DNA of 64,000 nucleotides from Cenococcum geophilum 1.58 (Eukaryota > Ascomycota > Dothideomycetes > Gloniales > Gloniaceae), in contig KV748183.1 of assembly GCA_001692895.1 (NCBI GenBank), positions 2,728,001-2,792,000 of the forward strand, given 5' to 3'. Positions 5,400 through 53,300 of this stretch are shown piece by piece. A model generated the notes under the pieces. It was not told where the DNA came from, did not search any database, and was given only the letters and a program-made list of their open reading frames with translations. Numbering within the stretch: position 1 is the first letter of the stretch; each line of letters opens with the position of its first letter. A program made the translations under genes and the position numbers.

Positions 5400-5404
5400 T
5401 TATA

Positions 5405-5927: not shown

Positions 5928-5932
5928 CTAGT

Positions 5933-8480: not shown

Positions 8481-8499
8481 ATTATACTAAAACGAAATT

Positions 8500-14265: not shown

Positions 14266-14290
14266 CATCTACTCTAAATTTTATATATCT

Positions 14291-15343
14291 ATGGCTTTAA
14301 AGGCTTGTTGTATTATAAAGTGATCTAAGGCTAGAAATAACTGGATCCAAACCCTCTTATATAACGTTGTTAAAATTATCGTTTAACTAGGCCCTAAAAT
14401 GTTTATAGTGTACCGGAACCTCCTTTTTACTAAAGCGCCGTGGTTTAAGAAAGCTCTTTTTAGCCCTTTCGTTAAAGCTAAACGCGGATATATTACCTTT
14501 AAAGATACTAAAATCGAAGACGTGTATATAATAGGGACTTTTGTTTCGTGGCTTTATAAACAGCACCCCTTCTGTCTTAGTGGTTCCGATAAGTGGTAGT
14601 TAGCGCTTAGTAAGATGTGGGTCTTCGCTAATAAGATAAATGTGATCGATTTTGCGAATAACGTTATGACGGCTATATAGCAAAAACGAAGAGATTAGGG
14701 GATAACCATCTCCGTAATAACTTTAAACTAAATCTGGGACAACACTATACCAAATTCAATCTTTCGAAAATTTATAGTTTATGCTTTAGTTAAAATGTCT
14801 TTATCCTATATCTAAACCTATGGCGAAAATATAAATTTAGAGCTTCTTTAGGACATATTAATCCAACTTAGATAATCTCCTAACTATGGAAACATAAGCC
14901 GATTCGACTACTTCCTGCTAGAAATAGCAAATTAACTAATAATATATAATGGCGTTAAAATACATTATATCTCTAATACTTATATTATTTAACGCATTAT
15001 TGGTAAAACCTGGTTTCTACGCTTAGATGGGGATTTACCTAAGATAGAGCTTACTCTTAAAGATTGTTAGCGGTTAACTGAAACGCTTTTTAACGCCATC
15101 CGAAATTTAAGCGTTTGTAAAGGAATAGACTTAGATAATGATTTAATTTTTAAGCTTTAGTAATTTATCCCTAAAGGAGCTAATATTAATTGTCTTGTGT
15201 TCTCTAGAGACTGTAGTAAAACGGATATATAGATTAGAATGGGTAATAATAAAAAGCTAAAGGACATAGTCGCTATAGCGTACGCCTTTCCTACTATTAC
15301 GGCCTATGCTAAAGTGAAGGTGATTATTAGTTACTAGTAATAA
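14291..15343 (+). pseudogene. BTB/POZ-domain protein 1, RIP-inactivated
   Basis: A single frame of about 350 codons begins with ATG at 14291. Residues 25-130 form a BTB/POZ fold: VVKIIV, GPKM, VYRNLLFTKAPWFKKALFSP, KAKRGYITF, VYIIGTFVSWLYKQ, then the helix LALSKMWVFANKINVIDFAN and NTIPNSIFRKFIVYALV. This is the usual fungal form with a BTB domain followed by a helical extension. BTB domains dimerise and often recruit Cullin-3; no other domain is evident in the C-terminal half (WFLRLDGDLPKIELTLKDC, KGIDLDNDLIFKL). The 66 codons from 14399 are free of stops. Interruptions are TAA/TAG in place of Gln or Trp. Confidence 0.7.
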
Positions 15344-15789
15344 ATTTAATTCTAGCGTACTCTAAACTTATACCTATACCTATTTTAAACTTATATCTAA
15401 CCTAACTTATATATAAGTACCAAAAGGGGGTAGTAGCCGAGGTTAATAACGACGTGGTGTTAAATAAAGCAGATAATAAGAGGAAGGCGCTAAGGCGAGG
15501 ATGGAAACAACCTAATAGTGCTAATTTTGTGAATTTTTACATTATTACTATATAATACTAATCTTAAAAGCGTGCCTATATTTTTATATACTTTTAAATC
15601 TTCTATTTTAATTGCTATTTATATTTAGTTCGGCCAGGGGTGTAGGTGGCTTGTATTAGCGTAGCGGCACTATTAAAAATTATATAAAGGGTGGAAATTT
15701 TAGCGCGTAGGTCGAAATTTAGTTTGCTAAGCGTTTAAGTCTAGCGGGTATAAAGAGGCTTGTCTTCTCTAATATTTTAATACTAGTAT
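15344..15789. other. spacer with protein-like plus frame of unclear status
   Basis: The frame of the next gene can be read upstream to about 15361 without TGA (for example VVAEVNNDVVLNKADNKRKA), but this cannot be distinguished from chance in RIP-damaged DNA. No motif was recognised. Confidence 0.3.
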
Positions 15790-17980
15790 AGCTTCCTCTT
15801 TAAAAACCCTCTCTCTATATAACGTATACGCAAGCATTCGGCTCTACTTACTATAATAAGTCTGCCAATATCTCCCACATTTCATTTTACAGAAAAAAAC
15901 CGTAAATATCTAGATATATTGCCGACCTTAGTTAATCGGCTCCTAAACCTTTAAGGAAAACTATTTAAGGCCGACATACTACGCCATCTAAGCGACAGCC
16001 AGTCTGGGCCGAACTATTTAAATCACCTAAACTAAGGGGTGGAAATTTTGGAAAAGATTTTCCAGCATTAATTAGTAGTTTGTTACTATCCTTCTTAGGG
16101 CTTACTAACATCTCCATCTCTAACGATAAATATTACTGGCCCTCTAAATATTAAGATTATCCAGGACGAGAAGATTTCTGCTAGTGGGGATAAGCTTATA
16201 GCTATGCACGACGGCATAGATAAGATTGATGCGGATAATAAGAGTATAGGGGGTGAATCTAATTAAATTTTTTATAAGGAGCTCTAGAAGGAACTTAATA
16301 AGTTAAAATTTAAGGGACAAAACCTTAAGGACGAATTTTAGTAATAACTACTAGAGATTTTCCAACTTTTAGCTACAAGTGTTAGCCATATTTATTCGCT
16401 AGTTTATCTCTACGTTCTTATTTTCTATTTTACTAGTCTAGTTTAAGTATATATATTTTAAAATGTTTAACGTTATAACCTATACTAAGTGACATTAAGC
16501 ACTAAAAGGGAACACTTAATTAGGTATATTACGGACATTTCCTTTTAGGATAGCCTTAATTGTATACGCGAACGTTTTATAGGAAAAGTTTAGTAGAACG
16601 TCGGCATCGCCTAGTATGTATAAGGGGGTAATATAAACGGGTTAGACGCTAGTACGGTAAACAAAATAACCTAGTCCTAACTTACTATATTATTTTAAAC
16701 TCGCTTATTTCTTTACCCGTACTAATAGGGGGGCGTCTAAGGCATTAATGTTACCCCTTATAATTAATATGACTTGATTTTTCTTAATGAGCACGTAAGG
16801 AATAAATCTGCGCCCAACTTATACGGTAATATCTTTTCCCCTACAAATATTGCAAATATCGCTCTAAGAATTATAGATAGATAACCCTCTGCTTACCCGG
16901 CATATTTACTTTATAACCTCTTATAAGCTATAGGCGTGGAGCTTTATAAAAGTTTTATAAAAATCTCTACTAAATAAACGCTCTGCGAGAGCTCTAGGCA
17001 CATAGTAAATATTTAAAGAATAATTAAGGGCTCTATTATTAATACGCTAGAAATGATCTTAAATTCTATTATAGTTATAAAACCATTTACATATAAAGCT
17101 ATGTAAATTATCCCAACTATTAATCTCTTCTATGCCTTTTATAAGTTCTAGACTAAATGCTTCTTTTAATACTATAAGAATATCCCTATATTGAGCGCAA
17201 AGAAGCTTATAAGGTCCTTCTTTAAAGTAGGTATAATAATATACTTCTTAAGCGTAAGCTTTAATAAATAAAGAGGAAGATAAATTAAGAAAGGATACCC
17301 TTTTTACTAAATAACAGAGACCGCTTATTTTCGTGTTATTCTATTAGGAGAATTGTAGATTTTCCGGAAAAAGATATCCCCACTTAGCTTGCTATAAAGC
17401 TGAGGTTGAAAGTGTTGCCGGCCTATTAGAGAACTAAAGTATACTCTGATTAGAAGTCCTAGTCTTAGATTTATAGAAATAATGGGCGAATTTTTTATTT
17501 AGATAGAAATAGAAGAATGATTTAGTTATCTACTATTAATTAATGCAGAAGGCTATAAGCTATAGCTCTTTTTCTAACGCTTAGTTAATAGATTTATAGG
17601 TATTAAATTAACCATCTCTCTTAGTCCGATCTGGTTAAAACAGTGCGAAGCAACTAAATGCATAATAGACACTTAAGTGCGATAGCTTAATTGCAATACG
17701 TTGCGATATAAGTGGTAATTCTGGAACTAGAATACTAAGATATATTTTAATAATTATCTTAGTAGGTAATTTTTTAATAAGCGCAATTCGCCTTCTAAAT
17801 ATTAGCTTTTTAAAGTAGTATAGTGGATTTATATACATTTTGCTTAATTGAAGATACTAGATATTTTAAATTTTAACTAGAGAGAAGGGTTTTAATAGGA
17901 TGTTATATATTTAGGAGAGCCTTATATAATAAGAGGGCATTTAGTTAAATATTAGCCTTACTAGCTAAATATATTTATTT
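15790..17980 (+). pseudogene. large unknown protein, RIP-inactivated
   Basis: One plus-strand frame of up to about 730 codons reads like a coherent protein: PTFHFTEKNRKYLDILPTLV, FKADILRHLSDSQSGPNYLN, ISASGDKLIAMHDGIDKIDA, then GINVTPYN, YDLIFLNEHVRNKSAPNLYG and NIFSPTNIANIALRIID. TAA/TAG interruptions sit where Gln or Arg/Trp would fit; TGA first appears after 17390, so the gene may end near there, with the last 200 codons belonging to another unit (an SPIWLKQCEATKCI stretch faintly resembles the run-up to a HET domain). No family recognised, no clear signal peptide or membrane helix. The start is not resolved. Confidence 0.4.
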
Positions 17981-18060
17981 ATTTATTTATTACACTTAGC
18001 TATATTTAGTATATTTAATAATAGAACGCTCTAGTATATAAAAGACGCTAAAGAATTAAT

Positions 18061-19604
18061 TAATAGTATAAACTTCTATATACTAATATTACTGTTTTTA
18101 ATATATCTAATAATTTGATTTAATTTGATATAGAAGGGGACGCAATCCTTTTAATAAGCCATGGTTCGCATATCCTTGTCTCTTTAAAGATATTGCAGTA
18201 TGCTTCCCCGCTTTTTAAGGCTATCTTTTCTAGTAAGGATATTAAAAGTAAACTTAATACCAATTGTCCTCCTATTATCCCTGTCCTTGATCTTTATACT
18301 CCTTTTCTTTATTTTATATATAGTATCCTACACGGCCACGACAGCTTAATATGGCAACTATTATCTTTGGAACAACTGTTTAATATGGCCATGACAGCTA
18401 TATATAAGCTCCGTTGCTAAGACCATATTAACTAGTTAATTGAACTCTATTTAAAGAGCTTTCTTATAAAGCTAAAATCGTCTAAGAATATCATCGACCT
18501 TCTTGCCACGGCAATGGTTTGTAGGTTTGAGCGGATATTCTAAGAATTATTAATTATGCTAGTATACGAGGCTACTGCCCCCCTTAGCCAGTTATTCTCT
18601 CGCAATAGCGGCAAAGTCCTTAAAAAAACTCTACTAGGTAATAACCTCCCTTTTATACAAGCGATAAATAATAACATGTAGAAGAATCGATAGAATTAGA
18701 AAAACTTAAGCTTTAGCGTTAACTTATAGAAACCCTACCTTCTTTTCTAGCACCCGTAAGGTGCGTTAATATAAAATGCCCCCTCTTAGGACTTAAAGCT
18801 AGAGGTTTTATTAATAAATTAACAAGGCTTGGAATATGGCCCCTATTAATTTCTAAGCTTGGCTTAGGGGAGACACTATAAAGGCTAGGAGAGTTTTGTA
18901 AGGTGGAAGAATCTATTATAGTTAAAAAGTATAGAGGCTATATATATGGATGCGTCTTTTACTATAAGCCACGAAATTTTCTAAAGGATGTTAGACGTAT
19001 TTAAGAGCGTATATAAGCCTTATATGCTGGGCATCCTATTTAACGCAACGTTACTAACTTAGAGAGAATACCGACTAATATACGAATTAATAGGACAAAG
19101 TTTCTTCTCCAACTACGTAGAGGACTCTATACCTCTATTCGACTTAATAGCTATAGAATAGTAGCTATATTCTTCTAAAAGGTTATAGATGCCCTAGGGA
19201 GTTATGTTCTATAAAAACCGGAAATTGAATTAATTATAGTAGAGCTCCCCTAGATTATAGGCTTTGTATAGGGATTTTAGATATTAAAAGATAGCTCGGA
19301 GGACTTTTTTTTATTATTAAATAGAATTACAGAGACCGTAGCTAAAGAGGACGAATTTAAAGATCTTATACTTGTCGCTAATATTTGCCAAAGTCCTGAA
19401 GATATAAAGGCTAAGTAGTTTATATTCTATTAGATTAGAGGTCTAGAGTTCTAGTTTATGCAATAGTATAGACTATCTTAAGAAAATGTTATATACCGAG
19501 ATCTTACAGCTCCTTACGAGCTTTAGAAATTTCCTAATAGTCCTACTTATGTCCTAACGAAGGGATCTATTAGCATTAAGCTGAAAATTTTAGTTACTAG
19601 TAGG
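18061..19604 (+). pseudogene. BTB/POZ-domain protein 2, RIP-inactivated and cut by an LTR
   Basis: A frame from about 18061 gives FDIEGDAILLISHGSHILV, LKILQYASPLFKAIFSSKDI, PVLDLYTPFLYFIYSILHGH and LLSLEQLFNMAMTAIYKL, the classic BTB core (DGD, LxVxSxxLxxxSPVFxxMF, acidic segment, FxxLxxILHG, L..LAxLAxKYxC). A helical C-terminal region follows (TISHEIF, DVFKSVYKPYMLGILFNATL, YELIGQSFFSNYVEDSIPLF). A single frame change falls in a T run near 19290; afterwards EDEFKDLILVANICQSPEDI and NVIYRDLTAPYEL read in the new frame. A solo LTR with target repeat GTAGG begins at 19605 and appears to lie inside the gene, because protein-like sequence resumes after it. Confidence 0.7.
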
Positions 19605-21640: not shown

Positions 21641-21689
21641 CATTTTAAAGTCTAGGTTAAAATAGCTATTTTATATATTATTTCCTTAC

Positions 21690-21887
21690 TATAACGGCGC
21701 TATCGCACGTTACCTGCCAAATTCTGCTAAATTCTACTAACTTGCGATTGGCCCGCCTAAAGCTAGCGCCTTGGCGGCTTACCCTATATATTTGTTTATA
21801 TTAGTCCTAGCGACCCCTTTTCCTTCTCTTTAGCTTAGTATCTTTGTAAGATAGTATTTTATAAGCTTTAGTTTAGAAGCATTTATA
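21690..21887 (+). mobile_element. partial LTR, TATAACGGCGC family, truncated at its 3' end
   Basis: About 198 bp starting TATAACGGCGCTATCGC align with the LTR at 5405. The homology stops after GAAGCATTTATAA at about 21887, before the expected end. A copy of the same family lies inverted at 22015-22236, with a 127-bp unrelated spacer between them. Confidence 0.75.
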
Positions 21888-22014
21888 ATCTAGTTTAACC
21901 GGTTATATAACCTATTTAAAGTCTTAGTTTAAATTTTGGACCGGTTTTAGCCTTAGTTTTAAACCCTAACCTAATTACTTATATTACTAGGATATTGCTA
22001 ATCTGCTAGGACAA

Positions 22015-22236
22015 TGTTACGGCTTAAATAAATGCCTCTAAACCGAAGCTTAAACGAATACTGTATTACGAAGACACTAAGCTAAGGAGAAGGAAAAGGG
22101 GTCGCTAGGACCAATGTAAACAAATATATAGGTTAATTGCTAAGGCGCTAGTAGTAAGCGAGCCAATTGTAGGGTTGGTAGAATATAATAGTATTGCGGC
22201 AGAATTTGGCAGGTAACGCGCCCCAGCGCCGTTATA
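22015..22236 (-). mobile_element. solo LTR, TATAACGGCGC family, inverted
   Basis: A 222-bp LTR on the minus strand; on the plus strand it begins TGTTACGGCTTAAATAAATG and ends GCGCCGTTATA. It is flanked by the direct repeat GACAA at 22010-22014 and 22237-22241. It faces the partial copy at 21690. Confidence 0.8.
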
Positions 22237-22374
22237 GACAAGAAGTAACTGATAGGCCCTTTTTATTCCTATATTTAGGAGGATAGAGTAATCTGGTAAA
22301 AGCTATCTAGCTATTTCCTATTAGCGTTTTGGCGGCTAATTAGCAACTAATTAAAGGTATATTAATGTTAATCT

Positions 22375-24919: not shown

Positions 24920-25254
24920 TATAAGAAGACCTTATTAACTTTAACGAAATTAATCTACCCTCCCACAATACTTATTAATATAAAAATTACACCAAATTAT
25001 AGAGAAAAGCCTACTCTATAAGTTATAAGATCTTTAGCTCCTTATACACGCGCGATATTAAGAGGAGTTTATTACCGCAGAGGCTCTAATTCCACTATCC
25101 TACTAAGGCACGCTTACGCCTACGCTACTAGCCCTCTTTATAACTAGTGGGTATTCCATCTACTATATACCTATTTAATTTATTTACTTTATAGCCCTTT
25201 ATAGGTTATAGTATAGGCCCTAATAGAGTTATAAGCTCCGCGTCTGTATAGAGC

Positions 25255-26050
25255 TATAGAGCTTTGCGAGAGCTCTGTAGAATGAAGCTTAGGGGGAGAC
25301 CTATATAAAGCTCTATATGGAGCTCTACTAAGGCTCTACAGAGGCTCTACATAAAGCTCCGTACGAAGCTCTATAAAAGCTTTGCTTAAAGCTCTGCTCG
25401 AAGCTCTGCTTAAGGCTCTACTTAAAGCTCTACTTAAGGCTCTACTTAAAGCCCTATATAGAGCTCTAAAGCTTTATTAACACGCAGCACTAATATACTA
25501 GAAAGGTTCTATAATTGCCTGTATAAACGCCCGTATAAACGTCTCTGTAATTAATCGCCCGTATAAACGTCTGCACGTCTATACGTCTATACGCCTACAC
25601 GTAGCTCTATACGAAGCTTTGCATTAAGCTCTCCATAAAGCTCTACCTAAAGCTCTGCTTAAAGCTCTGCTTAAAGCTCCTTAAAGCCCTACTTAAAGCT
25701 CTACTTAAAGCTCTGCTTAAAGCTCTGCTTAAAGCTTAAAGCTCTACCTAAAGCTCTGCCTAAAGCCCTATATAGAGCCCCAAAGCTCTACTAACACACA
25801 GCACTAATATACTAGGAAGGTTCTACAATTGCCCATATAAACGCCCGTATAAACGCCTATATAATCGTCTCTATAAACGTCTCTATAATTGATCGCCCGT
25901 ATAAAGGTCTATACGCCTATATAAAGGTCTGCACGAAGGTCTGTACAAAGGTCTACACGAAGGTATACACGAAGGTCTGCACGAAGGTCTACTAAGGCTC
26001 TGCACGAGGCTCTACGCGAGACTCTGCCTAAAGCTTACCCCCTAGTAGTA
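25255..26050 (+). repeat. 12-bp repeat field (AGCTCTGCTTAA) with a 305-bp higher-order duplication
   Basis: Degenerate 12-bp units of the type AGCTCTGCTTAA fill 25310-25460 and 25620-25775. Each block is followed by GCTTTATTAACACGCAGCAC or a near copy and then by runs of CGTCTATAAACGCC, so a unit of about 305 bp (roughly 25471 and 25781 starts) is duplicated. From 25900 a 13-bp variant ACGAAGGTCTGC follows. If translated on the plus strand the 12-mer gives the tetrapeptide Ser-Ser-Ala/Thr-Gln (TAA read as former CAA), similar in style to the Gln-rich repeats at 33.9 kb; coding is not established. Confidence 0.65.
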
Positions 26051-27880: not shown

Positions 27881-27957
27881 ATTCCCCTAGGGGTTTATTC
27901 CCCTAGGGGCTTATTCCCCTAGGGGCTTATTCCCCTAAGGGCTTATTCCTTTAGGGG
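27881..27957. repeat. 16-bp tandem repeat with palindromic core
   Basis: About five copies of CCCCTAGGGGCTTATT in tandem, each with the palindrome CCCCTAGGGG. It lies 100 bp upstream of the PRM1 start. The unit is not a multiple of three, so it is not coding. Confidence 0.85.
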
Positions 27958-28055
27958 ATCTTCTGCTTATTTTATCCGTATTATTTGCCGCTAGTTAGCC
28001 TTTTCCTAATATTTATCCTTACAGACCGAGGCCTTTCGCACTACCTGCCGTTATT

Positions 28056-30305
28056 ATGGTTTCCTTAGAGAATTAATAGTAAACCTTCCCGGCTGTGCCT
28101 CTATCTCTCTCCGCTGACGATTATAAGATATAAGACTACTACGTAATACAAAATGTATTACGGCCTTTAATACACTAAGCTCTATACCTTACACTATACC
28201 TCGGCCTTTGAGCTAGACTTTTATAAGTATGGCTTAACCGCTAAACTATTCTCCTTTTCCTTATTCTTACCAAAACCCTTATTGCCGTCGCTAGTATTAA
28301 TAATAATCTTTCCTCGGCTAAACAATAAGCCCTTCGCGCCTGTATAGAAGTAGAAAATATTAGCAGTACCATAGCATTTATGCCTTATTATATGGTATAG
28401 GGCGTTAATGAGCTAACCGCTAGTAGTGTTAAAAAGGGAGCGAATAGGCTCCTATTAGTGGTAAACCTTAGTGTTACCGCCATTAAGAACATTGTTCTAT
28501 TTGTTATTAATATAATAACTTAGACTTATATATGTCTAATCACTCTCGCCATTAGTGGAAGTTTTTATGCCGCAGTCTAACTTAGGGATGAAATAGTTAA
28601 GATTCTAAACGGCACCATTCCTATAATTAGAGACGATATTATTAGTATTACTAGCACCTTTAAAAAGGATTTCAATAGCTTTATAAATAGTTTAAAGAGC
28701 ATCCCTTTTGCGAATATTAACCTACTAACGCTAAATCTTAATACGGATATCAAGAAGTTAAAGAATTTAGCAATGCCTACCGACGTCTCTACAGGCCTAT
28801 AGGATCTTAATAATTCTATTCCTACTTTTACCGACGTCCAAAACTTTACCGAAACCGTTATTAAATTTCTATTTAAAGAAGTGAAGAAGCTTATTAGCGA
28901 GACCTTAGGCAATTTTATATTTAATCGTTCCTCTCTACCTATCCCCTAAAAGGAGCTGCTTAGCTTCTACTTAGAAAACAACAGGATTAACGACTTCTTC
29001 GACGGTTTAGTAAAGTTGGAGATTATGGCCCGAAAGATCTTCATTGGCGTCGTTGTGGTTCTAGCCATCCTTGCATACATTCCTATAGCCTATAAAGGGA
29101 TCCGATAATAGCGAATAATATAACAATAAGCCTAGCTTATTGGTTAAAGTAGGTACGACTTAATAAACGCTATCTATATAGCTTCTTGACCGCATATAGC
29201 GATATTTAGTATTAAGATTGCAAACCACCTTAGATCTACACGTTAGCAGACTCTCGTTAGATGGGTAGTAGCCTACGCGATATCGACCCTAGCACTTTTT
29301 ATACTTTCCCTAGGGCTTACTAGACTTTCCGCCTGCTTATACCAATACATCCTCCTTAAGGTAATTAAAAAGGAGGTTTTAGTACTTATAAGCTAGGTCG
29401 CAGGCTTTACAGATAAGGTTGTTAGCTCCCTTAATAATGCTTCTAAGACCTAGGCTAATGGGGTAAATAATGCTATTAATACAATAAACGCCGATATTAA
29501 TAAGAATATTTTCGGGTGAGTTAATATTACTACTATAGCCGTAAATTTAACTTTAAATGAGTTTGTGGACTAGATAACGGGTGCGCTTAACACTACCTTT
29601 AAAGGTACTATTCTCTATAACCCTATTATAGGCGTTCTAAACTACCTTATTCTACTTAAGCTTTAAGGCTTTTAGAAAGCCTTAATATAAGTCTTAGATA
29701 ATATATATGTTAACTTCCCTATACTTATAAATAATACTTTCTTACTTAGTGCCGTAGCCAAAATTAGGAATAATTCTTCTTTAGCGAATCTCCTTACTGA
29801 CCCGGGTAGCAGCACCGCGGATAACATTTCTGTCTTAGTTTTTGAGCTTACGAATAAACTTCGGAATAGCATCTATACAGAAGCGATTATTGTAAGCTGC
29901 CTTGTTCTAATTTAGGTCTTTATTGCGCTTATTAGCGTAGTCCGTGTTTATATACTCCTTTTTAGGCGTAAAAAAACCCGTATAGAAAGCGGTTAGGTAT
30001 ATATCGTTAATCCTATTACTAAAACCTTTTAAGGCCACGACTTCTAGCCTAATACCGCAGCACTGCCGTATAAATATCCTGTTAACAAAGCCGCACTAAA
30101 TATAGTTTAACCCCGACCTTTCCTAACCTTTAAGCCAACTTCTAACGCCTATAGCTTGGAAGCTGAAAAGGTTGGCTAAGTTAGTGCGTATAACGTCGGC
30201 AATTTAGTAGCTTACCCTAGCTATCTACGGACGAGCAGCTATGGAGATCTTAGAGGAAACTCCCCTTTTAATAAAAAATCTGTAAATAATCCATTTTCTG
30301 ACTAA
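28056..30305 (+). pseudogene. prm1: plasma membrane fusion protein Prm1, full length but RIP-inactivated
   Basis: One frame of 749 codons from ATG at 28056 to TAA at 30303-30305, close to the 730-750 residues usual for Prm1, which helps the plasma membranes of mating cells (and fusing hyphae) merge. The start gives MVSLEN then TFPAVPLSLSADDY. Membrane segments fall near residues 63-85 (TILLFLILTKTLIAVA), 143-168 (IKNIVLFVINIITQTYI), 323-345 (RKIFIGVVVVLAILAYIPIA), 404-430 (VVAYAISTLALFILSLGLTR) and 608-630. Between them lie the large extracellular domains with VNELTASSVEKGANRLLLVV, VQNFTETVIKFLFKEVKK, VNNAINTINADINKN and several N-glycosylation sites. Dozens of in-frame TAA/TAG and one TGA (29187, former CGA) interrupt it; I found no frameshift and need no intron. 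prm1 is normally single-copy, so this is probably a duplicate hit by RIP. Confidence 0.9.
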
Positions 30306-30680
30306 TTCTCTAGCATTTATTTGCCAATCCTCCCTAACCTTTTCTCTTTTGCTATATTCTTACCTCCATCCCGTATAGATTTGATATTTCTTAGTTTATT
30401 ATTTGTATTTTGCTCTACATTTTGCGCGCAATATTGGATGATATCCCCTTAAACATTTAAAGTCCTTTAAAGCGTTCTTTACTAGATATTTTAACGATCT
30501 TTTATATCACGAGCGCGAGATATCTCCTTAAAATCGGTTTTTGCCAAGGTTGTTATACTGCCAGCTTCTTACTGGTTACTTATCCGTAAATAATATTAGC
30601 AGGGAGTTATGGGCTCCCTACGGATTATAAAGTGTTAGAGGCCGTAGAGTAGCCAAATTAAAAAAACCTCTTTTAGATAA
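30306..30680. other. spacer downstream of PRM1
   Basis: No gene seen. A pyrimidine-rich start (30306-30470) could be the old 3' region of PRM1. Confidence 0.35.
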
Positions 30681-33149: not shown

Positions 33150-33640
33150 CCCGCTGCTACCTAAGCAAGTATAAAACTATAAAGTGCTTAGAAGATTGTA
33201 TTGTATAGATTAGCCTAGAGGTTAACCAAATACATCAAAACCTATTAGAATTAAAAAGAGCTATTTTACAGCCCGGTAAGTGAATTTTATACACGTTTAG
33301 AAATATATTAATATATCTAGATTACATTTAGCTCCCGGATACTATAATAGAAGAAAAGGAGTTAATAGATGCTCCAAATTCGGCTAAAGAGGCTTAGGAG
33401 TCGTATCGTCGGGGGTGTCTACTATTGTCCCCTAAGGTAAACGAGTTTAGAACATAGAATTTAATATAATTTAAGTTTTAACAGTAGAGAATTATACGGG
33501 TATTTTCTAAATTTAGTTAACTAAGCCTACCTTCTCACTTTAGAAGCAAGACTGTTAAGGTACCTATACTCTAAATTTAATTTCTATAATCTATAAGAAC
33601 TATAAATATAGGTTTATTTTAGAGCAAATCAGCTAAACTA
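33150..33640 (+). other. protein-like stretch of unknown nature
   Basis: The plus strand shows LEVNQIHQNLLELKRAILQP, IEEKELIDAPNSAKEA and ESYRRGCLLLSPKVNEF with TAA/TAG between them. It may be an exon-sized relic, or an upstream part of the giant Gln/Pro-rich gene that begins at 33664, but no domain was recognised. Confidence 0.3.
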
Positions 33641-33879
33641 AAGACAATTATTATTTCCCTAATATGACTCCCCCAAGACTATATATACGCGGCGACGACA
33701 AAGAATCTCTTATTAGATCTCCTTAGTAAGGAGAAACGCCTAAAAGAGGATCTCTTCTAGCTTATCCAGCATGGACGCTAGGATTAAGAAGTGGAGGGTA
33801 CTATGACGGGGTTCTACGGAGCTTATTTAGACTTCCTAACCCTAACGCACTTAGGCGTAACTTTAGATAAGAACAGTTA

Positions 33880-34236
33880 AGTTCCGCCTTATAATAGCTA
33901 AGCCCTACCCTATAATAGCTAAGCTCTGCCTTATAATAGCTAAGCTCCGCCTTATAATAGCCAAGCTCCGCCCTATAACAGCTAAGCTCTAAATTATAAC
34001 AGCTAAGCTCTACCTTAAAATAGCTAAGCTCTAACTTATAACAGCTAGGCTCCGCCTTATAACAGCTAAGCTCCACTTTATAACAGCTAAGCTCTACCTT
34101 ATAATAGCTAGGCTCCGCCTTATAACAGCTAGGCTCTACTTTATAATAGCTAAGCTTTACCTTATAGCAGCTAAGCTCCGCCTTATAGCAGCTAGGCTCT
34201 ACCTTATAACAGCTAGACTCCGCCTTATATCTACCC
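33880..34236 (+). repeat. 24-bp tandem repeat (block A of the giant gene)
   Basis: About fifteen 24-bp units of the type AGCTAAGCTCTGCCTTATAA. In the plus frame of the giant gene each gives Leu-Ser-Ser-Ala/Thr-Leu-Gln-Gln plus Leu. Unit length is a multiple of three and phase is kept. Confidence 0.85.
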
Positions 34237-34574
34237 AACCTCTTTGCTAGTAGACCTGTAGGAGGTTCCACCTTATAAGGCGCATTAGCAGAACTACCTA
34301 TATTTAAAGCATTTAATCTAATTGTAACTAATTAACTAATATAAGTCAATTCGCAATCTAAAATCCCGCTAGACGCTACTGGAAGCTCTGAATTATAGTC
34401 TATATCTACAATAACTAGAGATTAGGGAAGGGGACGAAATCTTACTACCGTTAAAGATATTGACAATAAGATGGCAACTACTAATAGGCTAAGTAACTAA
34501 TTGATAAGCCAAAATCTAGGATATATCTTATCCCTAGTAGAGCAAAATGTTCCTAAAGAAATTGTTCCCGAAGT

Positions 34575-34905
34575 CAGCCTGCCTTTTTAGCAGCAGCTAC
34601 TTTAGCAGCAGCAGCCACTTTAGCAGCAGCAGCTTCCCCTAGGGCCACATTAACAGCCATATTAATAACCGCTTCAACAGCCGCTTTAATAGCCACTTTA
34701 ACAGCTACTTTAATAACCACTTTAACAGCCACTTCAGCAGCTACTTCAGCAGCCACTTTAGTAGCCACTTCAGCAGCAGCAGCTTCCTTAGGGGCCACTT
34801 TAACAGCCATATTAATAACCGCTTTAATAGCCACATTAATAACCGCTTTAACAGCTACTTTAGCAGCCACTTTAACAGCTTCCTTAACAGCTTCCTTAAA
34901 GGCCA
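34575..34905 (+). repeat. 12/15/18-bp Gln-Pro repeat (block B of the giant gene)
   Basis: Units such as CAGCCACTTTAA, with an interspersed CAGCAGCAG run, translate to Gln-Gln-Pro-Leu/Tyr/His in the giant frame. A longer unit of about 200 bp that includes TTCCCCTAGGGCCAC / TTCCTTAGGGGCCAC occurs twice. Confidence 0.8.
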
Positions 34906-35464
34906 CCTTAAGAAGAAGAACTATAGTACGTTATATGCTAATATGCACTTATAGATAACCTAGAACCTGTATTTAGGCCTAACCTCTATAGGCATAAATT
35001 TTATAGGGAGTGTTTTGTTCGCCTAAGCGTTACGGCACTTTTATAGGATAATAATATACCTTGTCTATTATATAGGCGTACTATGGATAAGGATCTTAAT
35101 GTCTGGCCTATATATAAAAGATAGCTACTAGACGCTATTATAAGTTACCTAACTTCTAATTTAATCTACTAAGAACTTCAGTTATACTTATAACTTCTTA
35201 TTTAAAAGAATAATATAAATATTCTAACCCCTATCTTATAAACGGTATTAGATAGGCTCCAATAATTAGGTTATCCATCTCTTCCTACTTAAGGTTTATA
35301 CGATCTATTTTAAAACCGCAAAAACTTAATCTATAACGACTCTTTTAAAGATACGCGTCACTAGGAAGGTAAAATATCTTAGTTAATATCTAGGCACCCT
35401 ATCCTAATTATATTAACATACTAGTACTAGAGGAGTCTAATAGTGATTAATTTAGTAATACCGG

Positions 35465-35800
35465 ATATGTCTCCGCCTTCTCAATAGCCTCCACTTCCTT
35501 AACAGCCTCTACCTCCTTAACAGCCTCCGCCTCCTCTACTTCCTTAATAGCCTCCACCTCCTTAATAGCCCTAACCCCATTAATAGCCTCCACCCCACTA
35601 ATAGCTTCCACCCTATTAGCAGCCTCCACCCTACTAATAGCCTCCACCCCACTAACAGCCTCCGCCTCTTTAGCAGCCTCTATTTCCTTAATAGCCTCCA
35701 CCCCCTTAACAGCCTCTGCCCCCCTAACAGCCTCTGCCCCCCCAATAGCCTCTACCTCCATCTTATGGCGCACCTTATTAAGGTATCCCTCCTTAATAGC
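35465..35800 (+). repeat. 18-bp Gln-Gln-Pro-Pro-Pro-Pro repeat (block C)
   Basis: About eighteen units of AATAGCCTCCACCTCCTT. In frame they read Gln-Gln-Pro-Pro/Leu-Pro-Pro/His. The array ends with two copies of a segment containing TATGGCGCACC. Confidence 0.85.
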
Positions 35801-36519
35801 CTCCATCTAATTATGGCGCACCCCTAGAATAGGTACCTCCTCCTCCTTTAGGGATAGGACCTCCCTAAGGCGCCGATCTAATGTGGAGAGTATGTAATAA
35901 TTGCTTTTTCGTATAGGACTAAAATATTTAGAGAGAGTTAATCTTAGTACAAACAAGAAGTGATAACGACTTATATTATTTATTCTTTAAGAATAACGGA
36001 CGATAATAAGGGACGCTGATTTTTAATGTTGTTCCTACGGACATAATATTAGGAGGACTTAACATCGCACTAAACTTTATTTTATGGGCCCGCGAAGCAC
36101 AGCGAATAATATATATAAATGTTGGAAACGCAGAAACCCTAAGAGAGATATAACGTAGTGGGGAAAATCCAGTAGTCCGAGGAGTTGGGTTCCTAAGAAG
36201 ACGCCCTAGTATTACATTTGGAAGGGCTACCTGGACGTAGGTCAAAGTAGGGAATAGAGAAGAGTATGAATTCTTTATATTTAGTGACTATGTAAATACA
36301 CTGCTCTGTTTAGATATAGTAGCTCGCTAATAAGTTATGAGTATATGTTATAATAGTGGACAGAGTATACTATCTGATTGGCCCCTAGATAGATAATAAG
36401 CCCATTTTAGGCAGAATATACGCTAGGTAAATACCTCCCCAGCCTAGGGCTTCCCTAGTCCCGCTAGGGGATACTTTAATCTAGCTAGGGGATACTTTAA
36501 CCCAGCTGGAGGCTATTAA

Positions 36520-36735
36520 AATCCTAGAGGCTATTAAAATCCTAGAGGTTATTAAAATCCAACCTATTAAAATCCAGTCTATTAAAACCCAGCCTATTAA
36601 AATCCAGTCTATTAAAACCCAGCCTATTAAAATCCAGTCTATTAAAACCCAGCCTATTAAAATCTAGTCTATTAAAACCCAGCCTATTAAAATCTAACCT
36701 ATTATAATCCAGCCTATTAGAATCCAGCTAGAGTA
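36520..36735 (+). repeat. 15-bp Tyr-Gln-Asn-Pro repeat (block D)
   Basis: About fourteen units of TATTAAAATCCAGTC and TATTAAAACCCAGCC alternate, giving the pentapeptides Tyr-Gln-Asn-Pro-Val and Tyr-Gln-Asn-Pro-Ala in the giant frame. The strict alternation implies a 30-bp duplication unit. Confidence 0.9.
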
Positions 36736-36768
36736 TATTAAAATCTAACTAGGGGCTACTTTAATTAA

Positions 36769-36840
36769 GCACCCGCACCTGCACCTACACCTACGCCTAC
36801 GCTTACGCCTATACCTACACCTACACCCCTACCTACACCC
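36769..36840 (+). repeat. 6-bp Pro-Thr repeat (block E)
   Basis: Hexamers of the type CACCTA and CGCCTA in tandem encode alternating Pro and Ala/Thr in the giant frame. Confidence 0.85.
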
Positions 36841-37164
36841 GTAGCACCACTAGCAGGTAATACAGTTATTTAAGGACTTCTTAATGCAATTACTATATAC
36901 AACTCTGGACAAGCCGATCTATTTTTAGTTCTCCTCTAGAACGCAATTACTGGAATAAGTGATAATATTAGAAATCCAGCTCTAGATAAACTGCTTTCTT
37001 TAATTTATACGCACCGGCCTACAGATTAGGCGCTAGGCAATCTTCTTACTTTACTTGCTATAGCACGTAGAACATAAAATCGTTTACCTATAGCCATATA
37101 TATGTAGATAGACAATAATACCGTATATAATAACGTGCGAAATATATGCTACTTAAACGAGCTC

Positions 37165-37700
37165 TAAATCTCCCTTTCTGCTACGTGATTGTAATATCCT
37201 TATCTAAGCAACTTATTAGCCCCATTTTGCCTGCTATATTAGTATTGGCCTTAGTATAAGCCACCAATAAGCTATTGAGAGCATTGAGAGCATTAGTTAG
37301 ATTAAGTTCTTTTAACTTAAGTGAAATTTTAATTAAGTATAATCCGAGATACGCCCAAATCTTTTCGTGACCTATATTGGGGTGTGTCGAACTAGATAAT
37401 AAAATAAGAACTCTATCTATTGAAGCTAGCTCTAGAAGCTCTCTATATATATAAGGTAGGTATAGGTAATAGAAACTAGTGGTAAGCAATACGGTGATAA
37501 GAGAATGGTGGAATAAACTAGTACAGTTAGAAAATTCTTATAGTTTATAGTAACGTAGATTACTAACTGGTGTCTCTTAAATCGATTCGACCAGTACGAA
37601 ATTTCTTTAGTAGGTTATTTAAATTTAGGTCGAGCAATAATAGGGTTAAAGGATAGCCTGGGAATAATAGAAGCAAACTCTAATTAGTATGGGAGAGTGC
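37165..37700 (-). repeat. direct duplication, copy 1, with a short open minus-strand frame
   Basis: The segment aligns with 37847-38265, which lacks about 130 bp from the middle. The minus strand at 37181-37489 is open for 102 codons (IYRELLELASIDRVLILLSS, EKIWAYLGLYLIKISLKLKE, LNLTNALNALNSLLVAYTKA) and part of it recurs in copy 2 and near 45535-45588. The helical, Leu-rich reading suggests a small real protein, but no family was recognised. Confidence 0.5.
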
Positions 37701-37846
37701 CAATATAAATGAGAGATATAATTTAATGGAGTAAAGATTTACTTTATTAGAACATAGTATGCACCGTATTATAGAATAGGCAAAGGATAGAAAGAATATT
37801 TTAGTATAGTAATAAGAATTCCTCTAGTTATATTAAAATAAGCCCT

Positions 37847-38265
37847 AAATTCCCCTTCCCCGCTACACTATTATAATTTCCTTATCTAAGCAATTTATCA
37901 ACCTCATTTTGCTTGTGATATTAATATCGGCCTTAGTAGAAGCCACGGATAAGCCATTAAGAATATCGAGAACATTAGCTAGATTAAGTTCTTTTAACCT
38001 AGGTAACATTTTAATTAGGTGTTTTCTAAGGTACTCCCAAATCTTTTTATTACCTATATTGGGGTAACTAAGCTAGAATAAACTAGTACTGTTAGCAATT
38101 CCTATAGCCTATAGTGGAGCGGATTACTAACTAATGTCTCTTAAATTGATATAATAAGTACGAGATTTAGCCTGGTGGATTATTTAAATTTAGATTAAGT
38201 AACAGCGGGGTTAAAGGGTGGCCTAAAAATAGTAGAAGTAAACTTAAATTAAGGTGTAAGAGGGC
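37847..38265 (-). repeat. direct duplication, copy 2
   Basis: Diverged copy of 37165-37700 with an internal deletion. Its minus strand repeats KKIWEYLRKHLIKMLPRLKE and LNLANVLDILNGLSVASTKA. Its downstream end touches the last codons of the JmjC gene. Confidence 0.55.
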
Positions 38266-40840
38266 ATAATAAAGTGCATGTCCTTTAGTAATAGTTTTCT
38301 TTAGCTTAGCTTTTAATTTCTTATAGTTGTTATATAGGTAAAGCTTTTCCAGGCGAGGGACAACCGTATTATAGACTATAGTAGTTACTTTTTTCCTAAT
38401 CTTACTCCGGGACTCGGCCCGTTAGTTTTTTACTACTTTAACTTCCTTAAAGAAGCTCTAAAAGTATTAATAAAGAGCGGACCTATGCTTATATAAGGAA
38501 TTCAAACTAATATTACGTTTGGAATTTTCTGCTATAAGATATAACTCCACGATACCGTCTATACTCTTTACTATATCTTTTATAGGTGTATAAGACTCTA
38601 TATAACGTATAGCATCTTTAAGATACCTAAGAATTGCTAGTTTCCTAATCTTATATATGAGTTAAATTATCCGAAGCACACATCCATCTGCTTAATCTTT
38701 TGGATAATTATCCTACATTTTTAAAATACATAGTATTTGATGCTCTTTATAGCCCACAGCCACTGTGGAGGCCCGAAGGCAGCACATCTAACGGTCACTA
38801 GTAGTTGAAATCGGTGAGACTATATATATATTTAGAGAAAAGCCCTCGTCTATTATATATTTTCTCTTTCTTCCTAGTACCTAAGATCTATGGCCTGCTT
38901 TAAGCATACTTTCCCTACCTCCTAAGAATGGCCCTAACGCTTACTTAACGCAGTATTCGGACTTTAGGGTCTAGTAGTAGGTATTTATAAAGTCTATAGA
39001 TATAACCGTTAATATTAGGGTATATGCATCCATAATAGTGTCGTTATCTAGAGTTAGTAGTTCTTTGGAACAATCTAGTAGTGGCATACTTAAGGATCTC
39101 GGTAAGGGGTATTTAGAACTACCGTCTAGGATAGAGTTTAATATCAGTGTATCTATAAGATGGAGGTCTATTATAGATTTAATGCCTAACCTACAAGTAG
39201 AAGAGGTATAGGATTGTTCTTTAAATAATGGAGAAAGCTTAGAGGACCCTTAGAGAGCGTCTATATTAGTAAATTATATACTAGGAACTCCGGCAGACAA
39301 GACTACTTTAGGAGGAGTTTTATAATCTTTTAGTTTAAACGCTTTCCTTAACTTACGCTTAAGAGTATCCGAGTCGGTTAATTTAGCTAAGTTAGGCATT
39401 TCTAAAAGCTGATCGTCGAATTCTATATCCGAGATTGTATTATTCTTACGTTTATTTATAGCTACTTAATTATGTCTGGGCCTTGTATCTGCTTTAAATA
39501 ATAGAGAAAATTCCCGGTTTGGATTGCTGGGTAAGATAGACAAATCTTATACGTTAATATATGTATCCTCCGTATATTTTTTCGAGCAAAATTGGTAACT
39601 AACAGAAGCTTACTAGTCGCCTTTTAGTGTTAAGTTAATAGCCTTGGCGCAATTAGGACCTAGGTTTAGCCTAAAGTAGTATATATCTTCTAGAACTCTA
39701 ATAACCTGCCCGGGTTCTTAATAGATAATAGTGAAATTAATACTCTATTTTAGCAATTATAATAGGGTAATAAGAGGAGCTAAATGGCGGATAAATTAAG
39801 TATAAGACTTAATGCTATAAAAGGTCTCTTTTAGCTTAGATTTAAGGAGACGGGAATAGTATAGGGGTATAATAATCTATACTTTTAGGGAGCTAGTATA
39901 GAGGAGATTAATAGAGCTAAGACCGGCATCTTTAATATGCATACTAAACGGCGATATTGTTCGGCTGATATACGCATAGGGGTAGTGTATGCCTTCTAGC
40001 TTCTGGGCTGTTTGCATTAAGCGGTTATTATATTAAAGAGGTATTAGAGGTAAGCTAATTAAGGCTTATGTCTCTAGGTCTTTTGCGTTAAATATATAGT
40101 AGTCTATATTAATAGGCAATCCTCCAATTAATTCGGTTAGCTAATCTCCTTAAGACTGCGCGGTCGGTAACGAAGGTAGATCTTTATATAGAGTAGGCGC
40201 CTTTATATCCGGTATAAGAGGATTTTTATAGGGCCTACCTTGGCCTACCTAATAGACTATAGAGTTTAGAGACTTTTTTAAGAGGTTGTTATGGTAAAGC
40301 TGGAATATAGTGCTTTCGAAATCCACTAATAGGAAACTTTTATGCGCTCTGCTAAAGTCGAATAGTTCTATAGGCACTTTAATCTAGATAAATCCGTCCT
40401 TGCAAACCTTATCTATAAGAATAAAGCGAAAGGTATAAGGAAGGTTTTGCAACTCTTTAACAGTAAGTTGGTTACAGTTGCTAGTGGAAAGTTTAATTAA
40501 GTCTGGATATTAAACCCTCTAAATACATAGATAGGTAGACGCTGAACCTAATATTCTTTTACCACATCTTTTACGCGGCTTAGGATTTCCCGTGTATTTA
40601 TTAAAATACGTAAAAAATATTCTCTAGGCCCTTCTAAACCTTGTCCTATTTAACCCCTATATTAATTAGAACATCCTTATTTTCGTAAATATAATAAAGG
40701 TTATCGGTACAGAATGCCTTTACCTATTCCTAAATTTAGTTAGATGTGGTTAAAGCTATATATCTTTAACGTACTAGGAGGTCTTTAGTAGCCCTTTTAA
40801 TTTTGCTAAACTCTCGGTTAATAATAGAGCTTCGCGCCAT
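38190..40840 (-). pseudogene. JmjC (jumonji)-domain protein, RIP-inactivated
   Basis: The minus strand from ATG at 40840 (MARSSIINREFSKIKRATKD) gives about 880 codons with one frame change near 40.5 kb. After it come STSNCNQLTVKEL, YTFRFILIDKVCKDGFI and LLVDFESTIFQLYHNNLLKK. The JmjC core starts near residue 295: ISRTISPFS, MHIKDAGLSSINLLYTSSLK, SIKSYT, FIRHLAPLITLL, then QVIRVLEDIYYFRLNLGPNC and AKAINL. This follows KDM4-type cores (FGMHVEDADLxSINYLH ... GxxH.G.N.G.N.AE..NF). The HxE/D iron motif now reads HIK and the distal His reads Tyr, both explainable by G-to-A and C-to-T changes. A long basic/disordered C-terminal part follows (FDDQLLEMPNLAKLTDSDTL, RKAFKLKDYKTPPKVVLSAG). The enzyme would demethylate histone lysines with Fe(II) and 2-oxoglutarate. 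Interruptions are mostly TAA/TAG. Confidence 0.75.
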
Positions 40841-50339: not shown

Positions 50340-53300
50340 TTTATACCCTAGTCGGACTTATGTAAATGCAGAGGACATAGACTACGTATTGGATGTCTGG
50401 TTATACTATATCTAGCATTTATACTAAAATGAAGTTAGGCTAAAAGTCCTTAATTATAGCCTTTAATCTTATAGATGCGATTTATTAACTAAGGCGTAGA
50501 ATACGCTCCGCTCTTAATTTAATTATTAAGGCGAGTTTAAGAGAGCGCTCCTCTTTATTGTATTTACTACTAAACTACTATTTTAGGAAATAGTACTGAC
50601 TCCAAACTTGCCTACGTATGAGGTAATCTTCCGGTAACGGATGGCTGTTATTTCGACCTTAATTAGGGAACAGACCGCTTATAACAAGTAGGCTGTATCT
50701 CTTAGACTTTAATAACGTATTAAGGAAAGCAACAATTTCCAACTAGGGGGCGATGTCGCATAACGATGCGTTAACGTACAAGATTAAAATAGTGGTGGAA
50801 AGGAATGCAAACAAAACGTAAATATAAGGAAGAATAATTCCGTCCTTAATACGCTGAAGAATCAGAGCTAGAGTTAAAAATGTTAGATAATAAGCATAGG
50901 AGAATACGAAATTAGAGGATAGTTTAAGGAGCTAAGCCGATAGCTCTTTGTTAGAGGAGTGTTTTAGTTTTAGGGAAACTAGAGATAGTAAACGACTTAA
51001 ATTATTATCTAAGGGAGTTGATAATTGTTTAGTGTAAGAGCTATAGAGTGACTTTTTAGCGTATAACTGGAAGATATACCTAAGGATTAAGTTCTATAAG
51101 CCGTAATTAAAAAGTTCAGCAATATTAGTAACGGCAATATAGACACCTTACTCTTTCTATTTAGCGGTTATACGCCTAATATAGTTATCTAATTGTCTTA
51201 AAAACAATGCGAGAGCTTCTTTAAAGCCTTCCAATGGTAGCTTTCTAAAGAGAATACCGTAAGCTTTAATGAAACTTATATCTATAGGTAGAGAGTATAG
51301 ATATAACGTTTTAGAACGTCTAAGGATCGGATTTAGTAGTGTTAAGATAGATTCTTAGGCGCTTATAAATGGCTAGACGTAAGTTAAGGACTATAAATAG
51401 TAGTAAAGTTACTAGAGCGCATTAGGTCGCGCTAGTACGGCTAAGTAGTAGTATAAACGGCCTACAAAAGGGCTCTTATTAGCAGCTTTACTGTACTAGA
51501 AACGTACAACACCTGCCTAGGTTTCGCGGTCATATAGGTCCTTATCTTCAATAGCTATACGATATCGACTAAGATTATTAAAACATTCGATCTAAGTATT
51601 CTAAAATATAGGCACTGTCTTATAAAGAAGAGCCATTATCTAATAAGTAAGGTATATAAAAGCGAGTATATAATCCAAACTTTTGGGCAGCTGACGACGT
51701 AATAGCTTAAGGAAAGAGTGGATACCGTATTTCCACATTCTAGTAGGCATAAAGTACTTAGATGCTAGATAACGTAATGCAGGGGAAGTAGAAGGATGTT
51801 AAGAGGCTAAGAAGAAGTTGTAATGCTTATAAAGTAGGGTTTAGTATAGAGCAATCAATGCTTACCAGTAATCATTTGCTAATTTAGAATTAAAATCTCC
51901 TTCAGTTTTGGAAGCGGCAGAAGCCTACGCTCTATCCATATAAATGCATTTTCTTTCTACTATTATAAGACTAGTATATATAGACTTTACTTCTAATATA
52001 AGCTGCTCTTAAGAAATAGGGCGTGAGTTGGGTTAAAGTAGAAGGTTTAGATATTGAGGATTAAAACGGTTAATTCTAATAGTATCTAGTTATTAGCAGG
52101 TTGGCTATATATTAAATAGTAATAGTAAACCACTTGCCAAGCTATGCTTTGGATTTTTATAATAAGATAGCGACCTATAGGTCCTAGATTGTCGCCGATA
52201 GGCAGAGTGGTAGCAGTAGTTCGCTTAAACGGACCACCTATTACTGGCCGAGTCGTCCGTATACGGTTCGCTGGTAATCTTATACCCAACTTTAGCACGC
52301 TTTAGGCCGCCCTAGTGGATTAGAGTTCGCACAGTAAATTCTATAGGCTGCGCGCCAGAGCTAGCACGTTTCCTACTAGGTTAATACATTAAGGGGGTTC
52401 GGCCGTTCCCACTAGAACTATTCTTGTCTTTAAGTGTTAGCTAAGTTAGGCTAAGTATTAAACTACCTCCTGTAGTTATATCGGATAGTGTATAAGAGGC
52501 TTCTCGTGTCTAATTAGCTAAAGATTCCCTATAAAGATAAATTAGCTTCTATTTAGGGAAAAAATACTAAGGATTATAGAGCGGATAAAGGAAAAGGGGC
52601 TAAGCTAGGTTTCTGAAGACAGCCTAATACTTACGCTTTGCGAAGCGCCTCTTTTTATAAAAAATTTCGGAAAGGGATAGTTTCTCCCTAGGGATTTAAT
52701 ACCGCTTCCTGCACTTTTAATAAGTGCTTAAGATTAACATGGTTAAATAGCTAGTTATTTTACTAGAATATTCGCCCATTACGGGATGGGTAGGGAAGGT
52801 TGTTTACGGTAGTAGCCACGGCCGTTTTCGCTTAGGTTCTTAAATGCTTTATATAATAAGCCTTTAATAGATCGGCTATTGACGTAATAAATTTTTTAGG
52901 TTGGCGGTAGAGTTAAGGGAAGATATAAATTACTTATAGGAGCCTTTAAGTAAAGGGGGCGACGCTAGGATTGGCAGCCTTATAGTAACGGCTATAGTTC
53001 GCAGTTTTGCGTACCAATTGCCTTCTCTAACAATACGCCGGCCTCCTTATTGCCTTAAAAACGTGACCCGTAGTTAGCGTTATAAATTAGTAAGACGAAG
53101 ACCTATAAAAGCCGGAACCGATACACACTTAAGGCTAATACCGCTATTTAGGGGCACTTAGTCTTTAGAAGGTTACCTATAAACAAAGGCATTTCGTACT
53201 AAGGAGCTTCTAATATTTCGGCTCGTTAGGGGTACTTATAGTTTCTTATAGTTAGGGGCAAATAAGTTACTACTACTAGAATGGATAACGTCCTTATGTT

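What the first reader, a model, noticed from the sequence alone, without database searches (positions are those of the whole stretch)
33664..37188. A frame of about 1170 codons made of three unique domains separated by five different Gln/Pro repeat blocks
Repeat blocks with units of 24, 12-18, 18, 15 and 6 bp all keep the same plus-strand phase, and all translate to Gln- or Pro-rich peptides (LQQLSSAL, QQPL, QQPPPP, YQNPA/V, PT) once TAA/TAG are read as damaged CAA/CAG. Unique segments between them have the texture of folded domains, and there is no frameshift and no internal TGA that I could find. I know of no described family with this architecture. Such a protein could be a phase-separating or prion-like scaffold.
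Basis: partly seen in the sequence, partly recalled or inferred. Interest (0 to 1): 0.78.

Follow-up and report, generated by a model that had tools for sequence, protein, structure and literature searches.

The report
Mutated fungal glutamine-proline repeat gene
This is most likely a dead fungal gene, riddled with stop codons by the fungus's own repeat-induced mutation system, that once encoded a large protein with several glutamine- and proline-rich repeat stretches; it is a curiosity rather than a new kind of system.

Summary
The repeat blocks are real and share one codon phase. The 64 kb window is RIP-mutated, probably filamentous-ascomycete DNA (118 of 127 windows RIP-positive), so TGA-free frames are long everywhere and openness under TAR=Gln proves little. 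Still, the + frame 33664-37188 is probably a RIP-killed gene: motif spacings in blocks A-D are all multiples of three, unlike two control arrays, and a codon model from six Pfam-supported neighbours gives the non-repeat segments +11.9 bits in this frame, next frame -29.8, simulated maximum -8.5. Against it: segment U2 alone prefers another frame, the claimed register wins only 3 of 12 300-bp windows, and other coding tests are inconclusive.

Corrections: block A has a 21-bp unit, not 24; five non-repeat segments, not three; the start is unfixed; RIP blurs residues (TAG may be former CAG or TGG; TTA/CTA may hide Ser/Pro), so LQQLSSA and YQNP are not secure. No relative was found for the segments tried in Pfam, PDB, PHROGs, IMG/VR or GTDB; no fungal proteome was searchable. 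The prion-like/scaffold role is untested. Recognisable neighbours are ordinary gene domains, also RIP-mutated.

The parts
33664..37188 (+). RIP-damaged frame (TAA/TAG read as Gln), 1174 codons plus TGA stop; start codon uncertain
   Evidence: Translation by table 6; codon model sum over non-repeat segments; phase-locked repeats; other in-frame ATGs at 32839 and 33019
33664..33867 (+). N-terminal non-repeat segment (68 codons, 25% charged)
   Evidence: Composition; codon model a tie with another frame (-0.5 vs -0.6)
33868..34224 (+). Block A: 17 copies of a 21-bp unit, read as LQQLSSA heptads; Leu positions may be former Ser/Pro, Thr variants look like RIP-altered Ala
   Evidence: TRF period 21; unit and codon tables
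34225..34578 (+). Non-repeat segment U0 (118 codons)
   Evidence: Claimed frame best of six, +10.6 bits against +3.5
34579..34911 (+). Block B: QQPL-type repeat, 12-bp unit with 18- and 24-bp spacings, 49% Gln, 25 CAG survive
34912..35460 (+). Non-repeat segment U1 (183 codons)
   Evidence: Claimed frame best of six, +2.8 bits against -8.8; no Pfam or viral relative, PDB only E>0.9; AF2 pLDDT 36
35461..35877 (+). Block C: QQPPPP-type repeat, 18-bp unit, 44% Pro, 26% Gln, 7 CAG and 2 CAA survive
35878..36435 (+). Non-repeat segment U2 (186 codons); frame assignment least certain
   Evidence: Codon model ranks the claimed frame third (-8.1, against +1.1 and -4.5); the preferred antisense register has 2 acidic residues of 188, less than any of six known genes in their true frame (4.1-9.3%), the claimed one 17 of 189; AF2 pLDDT 41
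36436..36765 (+). Block D: 15-bp unit read as YQNPA/V; no CAA/CAG survives, so Gln is assumed
36766..36837 (+). Block E: short PT-type 6-bp repeat, weak
36838..37185 (+). C-terminal non-repeat segment U3 (116 codons)
   Evidence: Claimed frame best of six, +7.0 bits against -10.2; no relative, best Pfam DUF7869 E=0.027 below its cut-off
37160..38065 (.). Direct duplication (37160-37383 and 37841-38065, 80% identical) that overlaps the last ~9 codons of the frame
   Evidence: Self-BLAST

Best explanation
Shown: the window carries the composition of repeat-induced point mutation (loss of CpA and TpG, gain of TpA). Supported: 33664-37188 (+) is the remains of one protein-coding gene, inactivated when RIP turned most of its CAA/CAG codons into stops. 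Inferred: before that it encoded a protein of about 1170 residues or more, with several non-repeat (possibly folded) segments joined by Gln/Pro-rich repeat stretches that grew by in-frame tandem duplication. Such stretches most plausibly served as flexible, many-valent self-association linkers, a structural or condensate-type scaffold. With 135 in-frame stops it can make no full-length protein today. The block probably suffered RIP because a large segment had been duplicated or lay in a RIP-prone accessory stretch; the trigger is not shown.
For: RIP: TpA/ApT 1.56, (CpA+TpG)/(ApC+GpT) 0.57, CpG and CpT not depleted; 118 of 127 1-kb windows RIP-positive. Gene: motif phase and spacing in blocks A-D all multiples of 3, against non-multiples in the arrays at 25.3-26.0 kb and 59.4 kb; non-repeat segments +11.9 bits in the claimed frame, next frame -29.8, maximum over six frames in 1000 order-2 simulations -8.5; with each training gene left out the true frame ranks first in 6 of 6, although two of the six score below zero; an EM coding model seeded from JmjC+TPR calls +33463-37167 in this register. 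CAG and TAG alternate in the same repeat column in blocks A-C, as expected if Gln codons became stops. Neighbour domains.
Against: U2 alone ranks the claimed frame third and the N-terminus is a tie. In 300-bp windows across 33601-37200 the claimed register is best in 3 of 12, many of them repeat-filled. The EM model seeded from the finding's own segments drifted and called only 35434-36876 (+) plus antisense pieces. The codon-position test between repeat copies leans to position 3 by copies (11/21/39, nominal p 0.00015, copies not independent) but not by columns (6/9/12, p=0.15), and block A alone does not lean that way (9/4/5). The claimed frame has the most acidic residues, but that test picks the true frame in only 2 of 6 known genes. 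The null is simulated, not real non-coding DNA. No homologue was found for any segment tried. AF2 models are unusable. Function rests on composition alone.
Confidence: 0.52

Rival explanations
1. The coding strand is the minus strand: the arrays encode helical-looking repeats rich in Ala, Val, Glu and Lys (B and C, for example KVAVKVAI, EAIKEV), and the + frame is its antisense shadow.
For: Three arrays are open on the minus strand by the standard code: 33801-34271 (156 aa), 34574-34906 (110 aa), 35447-35806 (119 aa). The minus register of B and C scores best in 4 of 5 300-bp windows between 34501 and 36000. In that register 34577-36217 holds 27 TAR in 547 codons, fewer per codon than the + frame (135 in 1174). 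A TGA-free antisense run of 3596 codons covers the place.
Against: Array A is open in another register than B and C, and over the non-repeat segments every minus register scores lower (-29.8 to -63.2 against +11.9). Non-RIP differences between copies in B and C lean to what would be second codon positions of that register (not decisive).
Confidence: 0.15
2. The stretch is non-coding: RIP-mutated tandem repeats and spacer in which a TGA-poor frame arose by chance.
For: TGA is depleted everywhere, so long frames are common; no homologue was found; two segments score below zero in the codon model; the codon-position test is inconclusive by columns.
Against: Four different arrays share one phase with spacings in multiples of three, while two control arrays do not; the codon-model sum exceeds all 1000 simulations.
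Confidence: 0.15
3. There is coding sequence, but from two or more genes or exons that the read-through frame joins by accident; U2 or the C-terminus may belong elsewhere.
For: U2 prefers another register; the last codons lie in a downstream direct repeat; an opposite-strand coding call covers 37169-37570; the start is not fixed.
Against: The register is unbroken through four arrays and three segments in which it scores best (U0, U1, U3).
Confidence: 0.16
4. A living gene read with a variant code in which TAA and TAG mean glutamine.
For: The frame is open under table 6.
Against: The TpA excess with CpA/TpG loss is seen in every 2-kb stretch of the window. The neighbouring KDM4-like JmjC differs from 2w2i at two metal-site positions in the direction and dinucleotide context of RIP, which a code change would not explain (which residues bind metal is recalled). 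CAG and TAG alternate in the same repeat column.
Confidence: 0.02

Closest known systems
Large RIP-affected regions of Ascomycota (LRARs; PMC6714961 and PMC7882544, passages read)
   Same: RIP product and substrate indices pass the published cut-offs over more than 4 kb without a break (window 1-17500).
   Different: GC is 35.1%, against 16% (N. crassa) and 21-23% (F. circinatum) LRAR averages in the passages seen; recognisable gene domains and no transposon domain among the frames scanned, whereas 69.9% of predicted TEs and TE repeats of N. crassa lay in LRARs.
Disordered septal-pore proteins of filamentous ascomycetes (SPP/SPA proteins; PMC10023807, passages read)
   Same: Ordered regions plus long disordered stretches, in one case with proline-rich motifs, needed for septal accumulation.
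   Different: Their reported bias to Arg and His is not seen for Arg: all charged residues (DEKR) together are 0-5% of blocks A-E; His was not counted. No sequence link was tested.
Whi3 glutamine-rich region with a heptad repeat (PMC12470725, passages read)
   Same: Gln-rich disordered region with a heptad repeat that tunes condensates in a fungus.
   Different: No RNA-binding Pfam domain in the five segments.
Coiled-coil/prion-like Gln-rich proteins (PMC8386614, abstract and outline read)
   Same: Gln-rich low complexity overlapping a possible heptad pattern.
   Different: The a/d leucines here are uncertain after RIP; assembly was not tested.

Membership tests
RIP-affected region (LRAR) | TpA/ApT at least 1.1 and (CpA+TpG)/(ApC+GpT) at most 0.75 over seven or more consecutive 1-kb windows | tested here: met
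   118 of 127 windows positive; the first miss is 17501-18500. Windows inside the finding (34001-35000, 34501-35500, 35501-36500) miss the substrate cut-off, being rich in surviving CA.
RIP-killed protein-coding gene | Coding signal in one frame independent of openness | tested here: met
   +11.9 bits summed over five segments against a simulated maximum of -8.5; per segment the claimed frame is best in 4 of 5, one of them by 0.1 bit. Weaker tests do not all agree.
RIP-killed protein-coding gene | An intact paralogue or orthologue with the same block order | not testable with these tools
   No genome is held for the window; no fungal collection is on hand
Coiled-coil heptad protein | Hydrophobic residues at heptad positions a and d | tested here: inconclusive
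   a = TTA/CTA in 16 of 17 copies and d = CTA/TTA in 16 of 17 with one CCA; RIP can make TTA from TCA and CTA from CCA
SPA/SPP septal-pore disordered proteins | Disordered regions biased to Arg and His | tested here: not met
   For Arg: DEKR together 0-5% in blocks A-E. His was not counted separately.
Whi3-type RNA-binding condensate protein | RNA-binding domain beside the Gln-rich region | tested here: not met
   No Pfam family above its cut-off in any of the five segments (only DUF7869 E=0.027 and Ipi1_N E=0.16, both in U3)
Prion-like protein | Self-templating or condensate formation | not testable with these tools
   Needs an intact protein and an assay

The most novel reading that the evidence does not exclude
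The intact ancestor belongs to an undescribed filamentous-ascomycete protein family built of several folded segments alternating with four or five different Gln/Pro/Asn repeat stretches, a modular self-assembling scaffold; and a whole gene-dense block around it was silenced by RIP without transposons, recording a past large segmental duplication.
Probability: 0.15. Interest if true: 0.5.

Novelty: new member of a known kind. Interest (0 to 1): 0.27.

Why it matters
If an intact relative exists, it would be a further example of a fungal low-complexity scaffold. In itself the locus mainly suggests that RIP can silence a run of ordinary genes, and that reading TAA/TAG as Gln in RIP-mutated DNA can inflate apparent Gln-rich proteins: blocks A-C keep real CAG codons, block D keeps none.

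Tried and rejected
Openness under TAR=Gln as evidence: rejected, since TGA is depleted window-wide. EM gene finder without repeat masking: captured by C-rich arrays, discarded. EM with masking: the two seeds converge on different models, so I relied on the fixed model; a variant of that model with two more training stretches and an unmasked background, in 300-bp windows, was noisy. Codon-position test between repeat copies: the first version misclassified sites where the RIP-derived letter is the majority; the corrected version used motif-chosen copies and is biased (12/28/56); a fixed-step version had part of block B out of register; the final one is 11/21/39 by copies and 6/9/12 by columns, inconclusive. 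Acidic-residue content as a frame test: picks the true frame in only 2 of 6 known genes, so not counted as support. Homology: Pfam and PHROGs with all five segments, PDB with U1, U2, U3 (U1 had three hits at E 0.91-0.97, ignored), IMG/VR with U1, U2, U3, GTDB with U2 only: nothing. AF2 on U1 and U2 without an alignment gave pLDDT 36 and 41; no fold search was made on them. Rfam (gathering threshold) and tRNA scans of the window were empty. By-eye resemblances of neighbours to PRM1 (27.9-30.4 kb +) and EST1 (50.4-52.1 kb -) are recalled; the pieces scanned had no Pfam match.
Full report
Setting. The window has TpA/ApT 1.56 and (CpA+TpG)/(ApC+GpT) 0.57, with CpG and CpT not depleted, and 35.1% GC. 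By the RIPper cut-offs (PMC6714961, passages read), 118 of 127 1-kb windows are RIP-positive. This is the pattern of repeat-induced point mutation, a fungal process. Pfam matches above their cut-offs: DUF7492 (8.2e-60), DUF7727 (6.1e-33), HET (3.6e-24), TPR_12 (4e-16), Ank_2 (1.9e-13), JmjC (1.7e-9; best PDB relatives are KDM4-type), FAD_binding_8 (1.2e-5). Weaker: BTB (0.0012, below its cut-off), SRF-TF (7.7e-5, cut-off not shown), and Pentapeptide_4 (2.4e-6), DUF4130, Decapeptide, DUF7488 and LD_SV2, each in one of 47 frames, not placed. That HET and DUF7492 mark filamentous fungi is recalled. No transposase, reverse transcriptase or integrase family is listed; these covered many but not all frames, at thresholds from 0.001 to 1.

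What the frame shows. Frame + 33664-37188 read with TAR=Gln gives 1174 residues with 135 stops read through: 86 TAA and 49 TAG against 9 CAA and 46 CAG. Openness is weak evidence: TGA occurs 427 times against TAA 6341 on both strands, six TGA-free runs of at least 1486 codons exist in the window, and the longest (3596 codons) is antisense over this same place. The run begins at 32587 and has in-frame ATGs at 32839, 33019 and 33664.

Evidence that it was a gene. (1) In blocks A, B, C and D, 13, 22, 16 and 15 motif hits all sit at coordinate phase 1 mod 3, and all spacings are multiples of 3 (21/42; 12/18/24; 18/27/51; 15/18/21). Control arrays at 25.3-26.0 kb and 59.4 kb show spacings such as 11, 23, 46, 35 and 71, besides many of 12 in the first, and mixed phases. 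(2) A codon table from six Pfam-supported neighbours (TPR, DUF7492, Ank, FAD_binding_8, JmjC, BTB), not including the finding, scores the five non-repeat segments at +11.9 bits in the claimed frame; the other five frames score -29.8 to -92.1; the maximum over six frames in 1000 order-2 simulations is -8.5. Leaving each training gene out, the true frame ranks first in 6 of 6, two of them with scores below zero. (3) An EM model seeded from JmjC and TPR, repeats masked, calls +33463-37167 as one stretch.

Evidence against. U2 on its own ranks the claimed frame third (-8.1, against +1.1 and -4.5), and the N-terminal segment is a tie; the register preferred for U2 has only 2 acidic residues of 188, less than any of the six known genes in its true frame. 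In 300-bp windows from 33601 to 37200 the claimed register wins 3 of 12. The EM model seeded from the finding itself drifts. The codon-position test is inconclusive. The claimed frame has the most acidic residues (54 of 676), but this test finds the true frame in only 2 of 6 known genes. No relative was found anywhere searched.

The minus-strand rival. Arrays A, B and C are open on the minus strand by the standard code, and in B and C read as Ala/Val/Glu/Lys-rich repeats. The B/C register wins 4 of 5 windows between 34501 and 36000 and has fewer TAR per codon (27 of 547) than the + frame (135 of 1174). But array A is in another register than B and C, and the non-repeat segments score poorly on every minus register when summed.

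What can be said of the protein. Block A is a heptad (21 bp, 17 copies). Its second Gln codon is CAG in 10 of 17 copies; the first is TAR in 15 of 17 and never CAR. Thr at the seventh position follows a T in 6 of 7 copies, Ala follows a C in 7 of 8, as expected if TpG became TpA, so the unit was probably ...SSA. The Leu codons TTA and CTA are uncertain, because RIP also makes TTA from TCA and CTA from CCA; one copy has CCA. Block B keeps 25 CAG, C keeps 7, D and E none. Likewise TAG may be former TGG (Trp). So Gln/Pro-rich is secure for B and C, likely for A (Gln), assumed for D. AF2 models of U1 and U2 are of no use (pLDDT 36 and 41).

Likely working. If intact, many-valent Gln/Pro stretches between folded segments suit a self-associating scaffold; analogues are the septal-pore SPP/SPA proteins (PMC10023807, passages) and the Whi3 Gln-rich heptad region (PMC12470725, passages). 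Neither is met as a family: charged residues are 0-5% of the blocks, and no RNA-binding domain was found. This step is inference.

Novelty. Literature searches for Gln/Pro repeat proteins, septal-pore and heptad condensate proteins and RIP of gene blocks listed at most 12 papers each, with the starts of abstracts; among the rows shown none describes this architecture by title or abstract start. Five papers were opened. The library is open-access only and no fungal proteome was searched, so absence is not shown. I file it as a RIP-inactivated pseudogene of an orphan low-complexity protein: a new member of a known kind.

Noticed in passing
window 1-64000: The 64 kb is RIP-mutated at CpA/TpG yet keeps 35.1% GC and carries seven Pfam domains above cut-off and no transposon domain in the frames scanned; this suggests RIP of a duplicated gene-dense block or an accessory region.
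   Followed up: partly
window 38173-40593 (-), JmjC about 39634-39975: KDM4-like JmjC gene; against 2w2i two metal-site positions and a neighbouring histidine differ in the direction and context that RIP produces, so the enzyme is probably dead (the role of the residues is recalled).
   Followed up: partly
window 840-1223 and about 2300-2550 (+): HET domain followed in another frame by TPR repeats: possibly one RIP-damaged HET-TPR incompatibility gene.
   Followed up: no
window 37160-38251: Tandem direct duplication (80% and 75% identical pieces) downstream of the finding, whose minus-strand readings in both copies resemble each other.
   Followed up: no
window 25190-26025: Tandem array of 12-bp-based units with many spacings that are not multiples of three, used here as a control.
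   Followed up: no
window 21678-22248: A ~570-bp imperfect palindrome (71% identical to its own reverse complement) with related pieces at 5.4-5.6, 45.6-45.8 and 49.9-50.1 kb: possibly a RIP-mutated small inverted-repeat element.
   Followed up: no
window 33868-35877: In consecutive Gln codons of blocks A, B and C the first is a stop more often than the second (A: 15 of 15 Gln-type codons against 7 of 17; B: 15 of 22 against 7 of 22; C: 13 of 15 against 8 of 15), a possible local context preference of RIP.
   Followed up: no
window 27894-30422 (+) and 50368-52089 (-): By eye these readings recall PRM1 and EST1 of fungi; no Pfam match supports it for the pieces scanned.
   Followed up: partly
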